Shown here: one piece after another, positions 37,859 to 54,292 of the stretch
Layout of the letters: every line of letters begins with the position of its first letter
Numbering within the stretch: position 1 is the stretch's first letter
Origin: Roseovarius sp.
GTDB taxonomy: Bacteria > Pseudomonadota > Alphaproteobacteria > Rhodobacterales > Rhodobacteraceae
DNA: 64,000 bases
Assembly: GCA_027493545.1 (NCBI GenBank)
Contig: JAOSKR010000001.1
Location: forward strand, 152,001 to 216,000
Direction of reading: 5' to 3'
Made by a program: the position numbers and the translations under genes
Notes under the pieces: generated by a model
What the model saw: the letters and a program-made list of their open reading frames with translations, nothing else
The model's database searches: none
Told to the model about the DNA's origin: nothing

Positions 37859-40800
37859 ATGACGTCACGGCAGAATAGCCATGGCAGGCCTCAGGATGCG
37901 ATGACTGACCCAGGGGGTTCGGGCATAATTTCGCAAGAGGCGGACATGGCTAACCGGCATTCCGGCACGGATGGGCATGAGGCGATCGCCATCGTCGGCA
38001 TGGCACTCAAGGTGCCGGGCGCGCAGTCGGTCGATGCCTACTGGCAAAACCTCGCCGCGGGCGTCGAGAGCGTCGAGCGCCTCGACAAGGCCGCGCTTGC
38101 CGCTGCCGGGGAACGCCCCGAGGTGATGGCCGACCCGAACTACGTGCCCGCCGCGGCGCGGCTCGAGGGCTTCGACCAGTTCGATGCCGAGTTCTTCGGC
38201 TTCGGCCCCGGGGACGCCGCCATTCTCGACCCCCAACACCGCAAGTTCCTCGGAAGTCTGCTGGGAGGCGATGGAACAGGCCGGCCGCGTGCCGTCGCAA
38301 ACGGGCGGCGATGTCGGCGTTTTCGCCGGCTGCGGCATGGGCAGCTATTTCTATTTCAACATCTGCTCCAATCCCGACCTGGTCGAGGAAACCGGCCTTT
38401 TTCTGTTGCGCCACACCGGCAACGACAAGGATTTCATGGCCACCCGCGCCAGCCATATCTTCGATCTCACCGGCCCGAGCCTGGGATTGCAGACCGCGTG
38501 CTCGACCTCGCTGGTGGCGGTGCACTACGCCTGCGAGGCGCTGCGCGCGGGGCACTGCGGCATGGCGCTGGCGGGCGGCTCCACGATCGAGCTGCCGCAC
38601 GGGCGCGGCTATGTCTTCAAGGAAAACGAGATCCTGTCGCCCGATGGGCATTGCCATGCCTTCGATCACCGCGCGCAGGGCACCGTGTTCGGCAGCGGCG
38701 CGGGCGTCGTGGCGCTCAGGCGGCTGTCGGACGCGCTGGCCGATGGCGATCCGATCTGGGCGGTGATCCGCGGCTCGGCGGTCAACAACGACGGGGCGGC
38801 CAAGGCCGGCTATCTGGCGCCCAGCGTCGACGGCCGGGCCGCCGCCGTCGCCCGCGCCATCGAGGCCGCCGGCATCAGTGCCGATACCATCGGCTATGTC
38901 GAATGCCACGGCACCGGCACCTATCTGGGCGACCCCATCGAGGTGGCGGCGCTGACCGAAGCATTCCGCCGCGGCAGCGGGGGCGATAGCGGGCGCACCG
39001 GCTTCTGCCGGATTGGTTCGGTCAAGACCAATATCGGCCATCTCGACACCGCCGCCGGGGTGGTGGGGCTGATCAAGACGAGCCTCGCCCTGCACCACGG
39101 CGCGATTCCGGCCAGCCTCAATTTCGAGGCGCCGAACCCCGCGATCAACTTCGAGGACAGTCCGTTCCGGGTCTGCGACCGGCTGACCGAGTGGCCGGCG
39201 CAGGACACCCCCCGCCGCGCCGGCGTCAATTCGCTGGGCGTGGGCGGCACCAATGCCCATGTGATCCTCGAGGAAGCGCCGTCGCGCGCCGCCTCCGAAG
39301 AGGCCGACTGGCCCTTCCATGTCCTGTGCCTCTCGGGGCAGAACCGCGCCGCGCTCGATGCCAATGCTCAGGCGCTCGCCGCGCATCTGCGCGCCCACCC
39401 CCGTCAGCCGCTCGCCGACATCGCCTATACGCTCAAGACCGGGCGCGAGGGGTTCGCGCACCGACGCGTGCTGGTCGCCGAAACCCATGACGAGGCCGCC
39501 GACCTGCTCGGGTCGGGCGATCCGCGCCGGGTCTTTACCCACCGGTGCGCGGGCACCGCGCCCGATGTGGTGTTCATGTTCCCCGGCGGCGGCGCGCAAT
39601 ATACCGGCATGGCGCGCGACCTCTACGAGACCGAGCCGGTCTTTGCCGAATGGATGGATCACGGGCTCGCCCATCTGCAGGCCCAGCTCGACTACGACAT
39701 CCGCGCGCTGTGGCTGCCCGAACCGGAGGCGCACGAGACCGCCGAGGCGCGGCTGCGCACGCCCTCGGTGCAATTGCCGCTGATCATGATCACCGAATAC
39801 GCGCTGGCGCGGCTGTGGATGTCATGGGGCATCCGCCCGGCCGCGCTGATCGGCCATTCGATGGGCGAGAACACCGCCGCCGCGCTTGCCGGGGTGATGC
39901 GGTTCGAGGACTGCATCGACCTGGTGCTGCTGCGCGGCCGGCTTTTTTGATCGGGTGCCCAAGGGCGGCATGCTGAGCGTTCCGCTGCCCGCGGCCGAAC
40001 TCGAGGCGCTGATCGGCTCCGATCTGGATATCGCCAGCGTCAACGCCGATGGGCTCTGCGCCGTCTCCGGCCCGTCTGACGCGCTCGACGCACTGGAACG
40101 CACGCTCGCCGCGCGCGACATCGAGGCCCCGCGCGTCGCCATCGACATCGCCGCGCATTCGCGGATGCTCGACCCGATCCTGCCCGAGTTCCGCGCCTTC
40201 CTCGACCGGCTCGACCTCGCGCCGCCGGAAATCCCCCTTCGTCTCCAACCGCAGCGGCGACTGGATCACCCCCGACGAGGCCACCGACCCCGCCTACTGG
40301 GCCGGGCAGCTGCGCCACTGCGTGCGCTTCGCCGACGGCATGGCGACGCTGGCGGCGCGATCTGACCGGGTGTTCTTCGAGGTCGGGCCGGGGCGGGCGC
40401 TGAGTTCGCTGGCGCGGATGCAGGAGGGCGTCGCCCCCGACCGGGTGCTGAGCGCCCTGCGCCACCCCGAGGACGACATCGCCGACGACAGGCACCTGCT
40501 GGCCACGGTCGGGCGGTTCTGGGCTGCGGGCGTCGAGGCCGACTGGGCGCAGGTCTGGGGCGAGGCGCGGCGCAACCGCGTGGTGCTGCCGACCTATGCA
40601 TTCCAGAGCACTCGCTATTTCATCGAGCCCGGCATCGCGCCCCAGCACACCGACGCGCCGGAACCGACGCGCACCGACGACATCACGCAATGGGGTTATC
40701 GCCCGGTCTGGCAGCCGCGCCATGCCGCCTGCGACACCGATACGCTGGCGGCCTGCGGCGGCGGCGACCCGGTGGACTGGCTCGTCTTCACCGACGATTG

Positions 40801-53449: not shown

Positions 53450-54292
53450 ATGACCGACAGCACCCCGCCCCGCGCCACGGTGATCATCCCGGCCTGCAAC
53501 GAGGCGGGCTATATCGGCGCGTGCCTCTCGTCGGTCCTGGGCTCGGAAGGGGCCGCGCCGTTCGAGACCGTCATTGTCGCCAATGGCTGCACCGACGCCA
53601 CCGCTTCGGTGGCGCGCGAGGCTGCCGAAAGACTCCGACGCCCCGACCGGCTGGTGCGCGTTCTCGAAACCCCTCGGGGCAGCAAGCCCGGCGCGCTGCA
53701 ATTGGGCGACGAGGCGGCAAAGGCGCCGATCCGCCTCTATCTCGACGCCGATGTGACGGTCGATGCCGGGCTGATCCCGGCGCTCATTGTCGCGCTTGAG
53801 GTCGAGACCGCGCGCCACGCCGGCGGCGTGCCCCGCATCCCTCGGGCGCAAAGCCGCGTCAGCCGCGCCTACGCCCGGTTCTGGCAGCGGCTGCCGTTCT
53901 TTGCCACCGGTGTGCCGGGCTTCGGCATTTTCGCCGTCAACGCCGCCGGACGGGCGCGCTGGGGCAACTGGCCCGAAATCATCTCGGACGATACATTCGC
54001 GCGGCTCAATTTCACGCCCGCCGAGCGGGTGCGGGTGTCGCAGGGTTATGTCTGGCCGATCGCCGAGGGACTGCGCGCCCTGATCCGCGTCCGCCGCCGG
54101 CAGGACCGGGGCGTGCGCGAGATCAAAGCGCGGTTTCCCGACCTCCTGCAAAACCGCGACGTCGTGCCGGGTGGCGGCCTGCGCAAGGCGCGCGCGGCGC
54201 TCGGCGATCCGGCCGGGTTCGCCGTCTATGCGCTGGTGGCGCTCTGCGTGCGCCTTCCCTCCACGTCACGCGGTTGGGCAAGAGGGCGCTGA
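53450..54292 (+). CDS. Glycosyltransferase family 2
   Basis: 280 residues. TVIIPACNEAGYIGACLSSV, VIVANGCTDATASVAREAAE and IRLYLDADVTVDAGLIPAL (DxD) are clear GT-A motifs. The acceptor part GNWPEIISDDTFARLNFTPA has a DD acidic pair. It lacks obvious membrane helices except a hydrophobic C-terminal segment (GFAVYALVALCVRLP). Last gene of the PKS-NRPS operon, 9 bases after the GH-like gene, and convergent with a GT4 gene. Confidence 0.85.
   Translation: MTDSTPPRATVIIPACNEAGYIGACLSSVLGSEGAAPFETVIVANGCTDATASVAREAAERLRRPDRLVRVLETPRGSKPGALQLGDEAAKAPIRLYLDADVTVDAGLIPALIVALEVETARHAGGVPRIPRAQSRVSRAYARFWQRLPFFATGVPGFGIFAVNAAGRARWGNWPEIISDDTFARLNFTPAERVRVSQGYVWPIAEGLRALIRVRRRQDRGVREIKARFPDLLQNRDVVPGGGLRKARAALGDPAGFAVYALVALCVRLPSTSRGWARGR

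What the first reader, a model, noticed from the sequence alone, without database searches (positions are those of the whole stretch)
37859..54292. PKS-NRPS assembly line built into an exopolysaccharide locus
Seven overlapping or near-touching plus-strand genes (PKS, GT2, NRPS, PPTase, SGNH hydrolase, GH-like protein, GT2) lie between polysaccharide genes: a Wzy-like protein and WecG on one side, GT4, Wzx, Wzz, CpsD and sugar transferase on the other. Each gene overlaps or nearly touches the next, so they are translated together. This suggests a sugar polymer or glycolipid carrying a short polyketide-peptide group. Family roles are established; the combined product is inference.
Basis: partly seen in the sequence, partly recalled or inferred. 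Interest (0 to 1): 0.85.

Follow-up and report, generated by a model that had tools for sequence, protein, structure and literature searches.

The report
PKS-NRPS cassette in a surface-polysaccharide locus
A gene cassette that builds a small polyketide-amino-acid unit sits inside the gene set for a bacterial slime polymer, and the same pairing recurs in many marine and some soil alphaproteobacteria, which suggests the polymer carries a custom-made chemical group.

Summary
The operon PKS-GT2-NRPS-PPTase-SGNH-GH-GT2 (37.9-54.3 kb) lies inside a Wzx/Wzy-type exopolysaccharide locus (34.4-60.0 kb) whose order recurs in Rhodobacterales. As sequenced, WecG, Wzy, PKS, NRPS and GT4 carry at least nine frame breaks. 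The NRPS is one module, not a peptide line: formyltransferase, degenerate linker, glycine-type A domain with an inserted luciferase-like monooxygenase, PCP.

The four-gene cassette is a published orphan 'conserved Roseobacter PKS/NRPS cluster'. What appears new is its tie to the polymer. Polysaccharide markers flank it in 73 of 80 relatives' loci, against 0 of 13 control regions. Across 295 family genomes the NRPS and the locus's GH51-like protein go together (93 both, 14 and 12 single; odds ratio 97; still 29 after dropping genomes where they are neighbours); an unlinked T6SS control gives 1.4. An exoY-like gene lies on the cassette's contig, near it, in 10 of 10 genomes checked; in Phaeobacter inhibens the chromosomal exoY, probably of this locus, is needed for full attachment.

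Best reading: an oxidised N-formylglycine-primed short acyl group placed on the polymer. The tie is well supported; the chemistry and the attachment are inference.

The parts
34401..35387 (+). GT2-type glycosyltransferase of the locus
   Evidence: Pfam Glycos_transf_2 1e-10; 63% identical to a gene of the Parasedimentitalea locus
35438..36155 (-). WecB/TagA/CpsF-type glycosyltransferase (WecG), one frame break
   Evidence: tblastn with relatives' WecG, two overlapping pieces in different frames
36272..37838 (+). Wzy-like polymerase/ligase, one frame break near 37310
   Evidence: 56-63% to Parasedimentitalea homologue; that homologue hits Wzy_C at 1.1e-4, below its cut-off
37859..44422 (+). type I PKS: KS-AT-KR-DH-ACP-TE, in four frame pieces; likely start ATG 37946 or 37859
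   Evidence: Pfam on pieces and on intact relative; active-site motifs kept (by eye)
44427..45440 (+). GT2 glycosyltransferase of the cassette (GT2a)
   Evidence: Pfam; present in 80 of 80 relatives' loci
45437..50055 (+). single-module NRPS: formyltransferase - degenerate linker - A (Gly type, LLM monooxygenase inserted between a4 and a5) - PCP; at least three frame breaks
   Evidence: TIGR04020 457.7 bits against cut-off 244.45
50052..50780 (+). phosphopantetheinyl transferase
   Evidence: Pfam 4PPT_N 1.5e-25 and ACPS 3.7e-15
50796..51752 (+). SGNH-fold esterase/acyltransferase-like protein with an N-terminal helix
   Evidence: model pLDDT 92.5; Foldseek best DUF4886 4i8i E 6e-5, then a CE3 esterase 9.8e-4; invariant GHS and D..H; no Pfam hit
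51749..53440 (+). GH51-like (clan GH-A-like) protein with a signal-like N-terminus
53450..54292 (+). GT2 glycosyltransferase (GT2b)
   Evidence: Pfam 1.8e-16
54308..55512 (-). GT4 glycosyltransferase, one frame break
   Evidence: 61% and 51% pieces to Parasedimentitalea homologue
55701..57068 (+). Wzx flippase
   Evidence: Pfam Polysacc_synt_3 2.4e-34
58014..58346 (-). Wzz-type co-polymerase (part matched, weak)
   Evidence: tblastn 31% over 117 aa, E 2.9e-6
58445..59101 (-). CpsD/CapB-type tyrosine kinase
   Evidence: 45% over 226 aa
59353..60009 (-). ExoY-like polyprenyl-phosphate sugar transferase
   Evidence: 67% over 204 aa; close homologue near the cassette on the same contig in 10 of 10 genomes

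Best explanation
The cassette is a dedicated acyl-group factory for a Wzx/Wzy-made exopolysaccharide. Proposed steps: the PPTase arms the carrier domains; the NRPS activates glycine, its front domain formylates the amine, and the inserted FMN-type monooxygenase oxidises the glycyl carbon (as in the myxothiazol/melithiazol enzymes, which bear this insert at the same a4-a5 place); the loaded unit passes to the PKS KS, is extended by at least one ketide, reduced and dehydrated by KR and DH, and leaves through the TE. The acyl group is put on a sugar of the lipid-linked repeat, either by the TE directly or after release, with the always co-encoded GT2a building or recognising that sugar. Wzx, Wzy, Wzz/CpsD then export and polymerise it; the SGNH protein and the GH51-like protein trim or transfer groups outside. 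Shown here: gene content, order, conservation, active-site motifs, co-occurrence. Inferred: every chemical step, the order NRPS to PKS, and attachment to the polymer.
For: Neighbourhood: PKS-GT2a-NRPS in a row in 79 of 80 genome loci, with PPTase in 75 of 80; at least one of seven polysaccharide markers in 73 of 80 (61 of the 64 loci over 26 kb); the window's order from WecG to CpsD in 23 of 80; another order with Wzx upstream in 18. Control: 0 of 13 fixed 20-kb regions from three same-genus genomes has any marker. Co-occurrence over 295 family genomes: NRPS 107, GH-like 105, both 93, odds ratio 97. Linkage explains part: 65 of the 93 have both within 50 kb of each other. Without those 65, 28 of 42 NRPS genomes still have the GH-like gene against 12 of 188 without NRPS (odds ratio 29); dropping also the 24 on different contigs leaves 4 of 18 against 12 of 188 (odds ratio 4.2, p 0.04). 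T6SS control (unlinked) 1.4, p 0.26. Same-genus: 10 of 13 have both, 3 neither, counting one contig-edge NRPS. Chemistry: code DILQLGLVW here and DILQxGM(I/V)W in 84 of 84 relatives; formyltransferase N, H, D and PCP serine invariant in that alignment (by eye); PKS motifs kept in 79 relatives and the window pieces (by eye). ExoY-like gene on the cassette's contig in 10 of 10 genomes, within 1 kb of the fetched locus in 7, including 4 of 4 Phaeobacter; deletion of the P. inhibens chromosomal exoY lowers attachment (PMC10984933, passages).
Against: No polymer from such a locus is known to me to have been analysed for this group. Location and co-occurrence cannot tell a group on the polymer from a free metabolite used alongside it, and co-occurrence is partly plain linkage. 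Export genes that would suit a free product lie close in two outgroup loci: TolC next to the Aminobacter PKS and type I secretion genes near the Shinella PKS. I recognised no dedicated enzyme for moving the acyl group to a lipid-linked sugar; the TE could simply release an acid. 14 genomes have the NRPS without the GH-like gene and 12 the reverse. The formyltransferase is closer to ArnA and sugar-nucleotide formyltransferases (6.6e-18) than to LgrA's (3e-5), so it may not act on glycine. PKS and NRPS are broken as sequenced here. No test was corrected for kinship.
Confidence: 0.6

Rival explanations
1. The cassette makes a free, possibly glycosylated small molecule (signal, metallophore or defence compound) that is co-located with the polysaccharide because both serve surface life.
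For: The published view treats it as an orphan secondary-metabolite cluster (PMC4337385, PMC5014874; passages). In Paracoccus marcusii CP157 a plasmid PKS-NRPS region, perhaps the same one, is reported as a hybrid cluster with an AHL synthase gene (PMC8273931, passages). The PKS ends in a thioesterase. TolC or type I secretion genes lie near the PKS in two outgroup loci.
Against: Partners that recur across genera and in the outgroup are WecG, Wzx, Wzy-like and sugar transferase. The NRPS tracks a GH-like gene across genomes beyond linkage.
Confidence: 0.22
2. The PKS-NRPS product is a lipid-like anchor or primer on which a glycolipid or polymer is built, as proposed for rkpA in rhizobial K-antigen synthesis.
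For: A single-module PKS could act iteratively; PKS/FAS-like genes in capsule loci have a precedent (rkpA; recalled, and only seen in the search listing).
Against: The locus has its own ExoY-like sugar transferase, a type that primes on polyprenyl phosphate, and no enoyl reductase domain was found in two intact relatives, so a saturated lipid chain is unlikely.
Confidence: 0.1
3. In this particular genome the cassette is decaying and makes nothing.
For: At least nine frame breaks in five genes; same-genus NRPS copies are open.
Against: Five of nine break regions hold a run of five or more equal bases; third-position GC stays high on both sides of the breaks; a DAO gene outside the locus is split in the same way. 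This fits long-read indels, and active-site motifs are kept.
Confidence: 0.15

Closest known systems
Conserved Roseobacter PKS/NRPS cluster (Martens et al., as cited in PMC4337385 and PMC5014874)
   Same: Same four genes: PKS, glycosyltransferase, NRPS, PPTase; reported in 28 of 57 Roseobacter genomes, product unknown (passages).
   Different: The passages I saw do not mention polysaccharide neighbours, the GH-like partner, the formyltransferase or the inserted monooxygenase. Martens et al. itself was not available.
Phaeobacter inhibens chromosomal exoY exopolysaccharide module (PMC10984933)
   Same: Wzx/Wzy module with ExoY-like sugar transferase; its tags PGA1_c05260/c05320 lie near PGA1_c05350, listed among the PKS/NRPS genes in PMC4062626; in 4 of 4 other Phaeobacter the gene is beside the cassette.
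   Different: The paper reports that sugar-modification genes were not detected there (section 9). I could not read the P. inhibens chromosome, so identity of the locus is inference.
Myxothiazol/melithiazol NRPS with monooxygenase in a glycine A domain (as described in PMC10204066)
   Same: Monooxygenase inserted between a4 and a5 of a glycine-type A domain.
   Different: Here it is a loading-type module with formyltransferase, no intact C domain and no thioesterase on the same protein.
Linear gramicidin LgrA formylating module
   Same: Formyltransferase, then A, then PCP.
   Different: Formyltransferase is nearer to ArnA-type enzymes, a degenerate linker lies between, and A carries a monooxygenase.
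rkpA-type PKS of rhizobial K-antigen loci (recalled)
   Same: PKS gene within a surface-polysaccharide locus.
   Different: No enoyl reductase found here; paired with an NRPS and an ExoY-like primed pathway.

Membership tests
Conserved Roseobacter PKS/NRPS cluster | PKS, glycosyltransferase, NRPS and PPTase genes together | tested here: met
   definition from PMC4337385 passage
Conserved Roseobacter PKS/NRPS cluster | lies in the Roseobacter/Rhodobacteraceae lineage | tested here: met
   same-genus genome G009 has a contig of the same length (3900206) as Rhodobacteraceae bacterium EL129 and the same match scores; 105 of 295 genomes of the family over the TIGR04020 cut-off
Wzx/Wzy-dependent polysaccharide locus | priming sugar transferase, flippase, polymerase, co-polymerase/kinase, several GTs | tested here: met
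   Wzy only by homology to a protein with a sub-threshold Wzy_C hit; Wzz weak
Wzx/Wzy-dependent polysaccharide locus | outer-membrane export protein (OPX) in the locus | tested here: inconclusive
   not among the window ORFs I scanned; not all ORFs were scanned
MupA/Atu3671 luciferase-like monooxygenase (TIGR04020) | score over 244.45 bits | tested here: met
   457.7 bits
Myxothiazol-type glycine module with monooxygenase | glycine code and a4-a5 insertion | tested here: met
   insertion site described in PMC10204066 (passages); glycine meaning of the code is recalled
Myxothiazol-type glycine module with monooxygenase | following thioesterase domain and an upstream chain to release | tested here: not met
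   no thioesterase or condensation domain matched in two intact NRPSs
Formylating initiation module (LgrA-like) | formyltransferase fused to A-PCP with catalytic N, H, D residues | tested here: met
   (residues by eye; their role recalled)
rkpA-type K-antigen PKS | enoyl reductase in the PKS (recalled) | tested here: not met
   no such domain in two intact relatives
GH51/clan GH-A glycosidase | barrel fold with two catalytic glutamates | tested here: inconclusive

The most novel reading that the evidence does not exclude
A widespread class of alphaproteobacterial exopolysaccharides carries a group made by its own PKS-NRPS assembly line from formylated, oxidised glycine and a ketide; a common orphan cluster of marine Rhodobacterales is thus a polymer-decoration pathway, not a secondary-metabolite pathway, and a GH51-like protein is its dedicated partner.
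Probability: 0.45. Interest if true: 0.85.

Novelty: new variant of a known kind. Interest (0 to 1): 0.66.

Why it matters
An orphan assembly line found in about a third of the sampled genera of the family (106 of 294) gets a concrete, testable role: modifying the surface polymer used for attachment and, probably, in Phaeobacter, for the shared matrix with algae. If true it would explain why this 'secondary metabolite' cluster is so conserved, and would add assembly-line chemistry to the ways bacteria decorate polysaccharides.

Tried and rejected
Peptide assembly line: rejected, as the NRPS holds one A domain and one PCP, and the stretch between formyltransferase and A is poorly conserved. ER domain or fatty-acid-like PKS: not found. 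Chance proximity: rejected by the region control; the T6SS control speaks to family-wide bias but not to linkage, which I tested apart. Profile searches of the PDB with the SGNH and GH-like alignments gave nothing credible; fold comparison did. AT substrate could not be read from its motif. Promoter and terminator scans were at background. KS comparison with solved structures ranked both hybrid and ordinary PKSs and did not settle the order NRPS to PKS.

Literature: the searches (held open library; one search found nothing, and searches listed only part of their hits) showed no paper that I recognised as tying this cluster to a polysaccharide. That is absence in those listings only; most subscription papers, Martens et al. 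among them, are not held. Papers were seen as passages (PMC4062626, PMC8273931, PMC4337385, PMC5014874, PMC13291983, PMC8739492, PMC10204066, PMC9396620) or passages plus one section (PMC10984933); none was read whole.

Rows dropped: of 79 genome-locus PKSs six outside 2090-2260 aa, and of 80 NRPSs two outside 1480-1700 aa, were left out of the alignments; six plasmid or outgroup copies were added to each. Only the best 80 of 365 relatives were kept by the tool. In the PKS plasmid search I opened 8 of the 15 listed records, two of them without annotation.
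Full report
What is there. The window belongs to G000 (3.33 Mb, 5 contigs, 91.5% complete). Between 34.4 and 60.0 kb lies one polysaccharide locus: GT, WecG(-), Wzy-like, PKS, GT2a, NRPS, PPTase, SGNH, GH-like, GT2b, GT4(-), Wzx, Wzz(-), CpsD(-), ExoY-like sugar transferase(-).

Breaks. As sequenced, PKS, NRPS, WecG, Wzy and GT4 are not open. Homology pieces put at least nine breaks between 35.4 and 55.5 kb. Five of the nine break regions contain a run of five or more equal bases; the window has 139 such runs in 64 kb. Third-position GC stays high in shifted frame across the breaks. 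A DAO gene outside the locus is split the same way. The NRPS of eight same-genus genomes is open over 1549-1882 codons against 1036 here. I favour sequencing indels but cannot exclude decay.

Domain anatomy, read from intact relatives. PKS (Ruegeria conchae, Parasedimentitalea): KS-AT-KR-DH-ACP-TE, no ER. In an alignment of 79 PKSs plus the window pieces the KS cysteine and histidines, AT serine, KR tyrosine, DH histidine and aspartate, ACP serine and TE motif are present (read by eye; motif meanings recalled). NRPS: formyltransferase N and C domains, a poorly conserved stretch of about 240 residues, AMP-binding domain split by a luciferase-like monooxygenase, PCP. The A-domain code is DILQLGLVW in the window and DILQxGM(I/V)W in 84 of 84 relatives, a glycine-type code (recalled). 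The insert sits after a4 and before a5, the place which PMC10204066 (passages) describes for the myxothiazol and melithiazol enzymes, where a glycyl carbon is hydroxylated. The solved protein nearest to the insert is PuwE (1.6e-94). The formyltransferase is nearest to ArnA, sugar-nucleotide and Met-tRNA formyltransferases, and only weakly to LgrA.

Conservation of neighbourhood. One scan of genome contigs with the Ruegeria NRPS gave 365 relatives from 370 stretches; the best 80 were kept, nearly all with Rhodobacterales names. PKS-GT2a-NRPS are in a row in 79 of 80 and with PPTase in 75 of 80; the window's order from WecG to CpsD is found in 23; another order with Wzx directly upstream in 18; at least one of seven markers (SugT, WecG, CpsD, Wzz, Wzx, Wzy, GT4) in 73 of 80, and in 61 of the 64 loci over 26 kb. 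The seven without: four on short contigs (L059, L062, L069, L070) and L038, L043, L116, whose flanks hold rfb genes with a polysaccharide-export gene, ManC with an acyltransferase, and an EpsH/EpsI exosortase with a GT2 (I scanned 2, 7 and 6 ORFs of these loci). Control: 13 fixed 20-kb regions from three same-genus genomes (7, 5 and 1) gave 0 with any marker. Seven of seven same-genus cassette loci fetched have at least one marker, L123 only GT4 of the seven. In four Hyphomicrobiales plasmid loci PKS and NRPS are divergent, with WecG and Wzx in 3 of 4 and a sugar transferase in 2 of 4; the fourth (Aminobacter) has an O-antigen-ligase-like gene and, against my reading, TolC beside the PKS; Shinella has type I secretion genes nearby.

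Co-occurrence. In 295 family genomes, nearly one per genus, TIGR04020 (E <= 1e-60) is found in 107 and the GH-like protein (E <= 1e-15) in 105: both 93, NRPS only 14, GH-like only 12, neither 176; odds ratio 97, Fisher p 2.8e-47. Part of this is linkage: of the 93, 69 have both on one contig, 65 of these within 50 kb and 4 at 81-585 kb; 24 have them on different contigs, some surely through fragmentation. Without the 65, the odds ratio is 29 (28 of 42 against 12 of 188); without the 24 as well, 4.2 (4 of 18 against 12 of 188, p 0.04). A patchy unlinked control, T6SS PF05936, is in 71 of 295 and overlaps in 30 against 25.8 expected, odds ratio 1.4, p 0.26. In the 13 same-genus genomes 9 pass the NRPS cut-off, G002 has it at a contig edge, and the same 10 have the GH-like gene; the Wzy-like gene is in 11. 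No kinship correction was made.

What is known. PMC4337385 (passages) and PMC5014874 (passages) describe this four-gene cluster as conserved in Roseobacters (28 of 57 genomes in the former) with unknown product, citing Martens et al. PMC4062626 (passages) lists PKS Inhi_1972 and NRPS Inhi_1974 in P. inhibens T5, and PGA1_c04930 and PGA1_c05350 among the corresponding genes of DSM 17395. PMC10984933 (passages and section 9) reports that deletion of the chromosomal exoY of P. inhibens (given as PGA1_c05260 in a table and PGA1_c05320 in the methods) reduces attachment and structure thickness, that exoY rises in algal co-culture while the rest of the module is mostly unchanged or down, and that no sugar-modification genes were detected. 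The neighbouring tags suggest that this is the same locus; I could not read that chromosome. In ten genomes checked, the best or a strong match to the window's sugar transferase lies on the same contig as the cassette (contig lengths agree in 10 of 10), within 1 kb of the fetched locus in seven (four Phaeobacter, Roseobacter MED193, Leisingera aquimarina, Sulfitobacter dubius) and 4, 4 and 11 kb away in three (L057, L101, L051).

Mechanism and rivals. I commit to a decoration pathway: glycine loaded, formylated and oxidised, extended by the PKS, and put on the polymer. The tie to the polymer rests on order, rearranged-but-retained neighbourhood, and co-occurrence that persists, more weakly, where genes are not neighbours. 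Chemistry is inference; the formyltransferase's kinship to sugar enzymes leaves open that it formylates an amino sugar instead. A free metabolite remains the main rival; a Paracoccus region reported with an AHL synthase gene (PMC8273931, passages) and the two outgroup export genes fit it.

Novelty. The cassette is known and orphan; its polymer tie, the GH51-like partner and the formyl/oxidase loading module are, as far as my listed searches reach, not described. The result makes a long-standing orphan testable with an existing mutant background.

Noticed in passing
window 14000-22000: GC falls to about 0.59-0.62 against about 0.65-0.72 around it; holds a transposase piece, GntR regulator, glutamine-synthetase-like gene, DAO gene split in two frames and a solute-binding protein piece; tRNA-Ala lies at 22032-22107, minus. 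Looks like acquired DNA.
   Followed up: partly
window 25911-26798 (-): Formyltransferase-like stretch matching the NRPS front domain at E 8e-13, probably methionyl-tRNA formyltransferase (name recalled).
   Followed up: no
L093: Record named Nocardioides marinus carries a Rhodobacterales-type cassette locus, so the name or the assembly is probably wrong.
   Followed up: no
L003:1-2687 and L013:706-4584: Paracoccus plasmid loci carry a second NRPS (adenylation) gene next to WecB/TagA/CpsF in the same polysaccharide region.
   Followed up: no
G006 contigs C8 and C73: Cassette and GH-like plus Wzy-like genes lie on different contigs, the latter as divergent copies (42-43% identity).
   Followed up: partly
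L061, L075, L090 and others, GH-like gene: Long form appears to be a fusion of an SGNH-like domain with the GH51-like domain, next to a separate SGNH gene; the window has the short form.
   Followed up: partly
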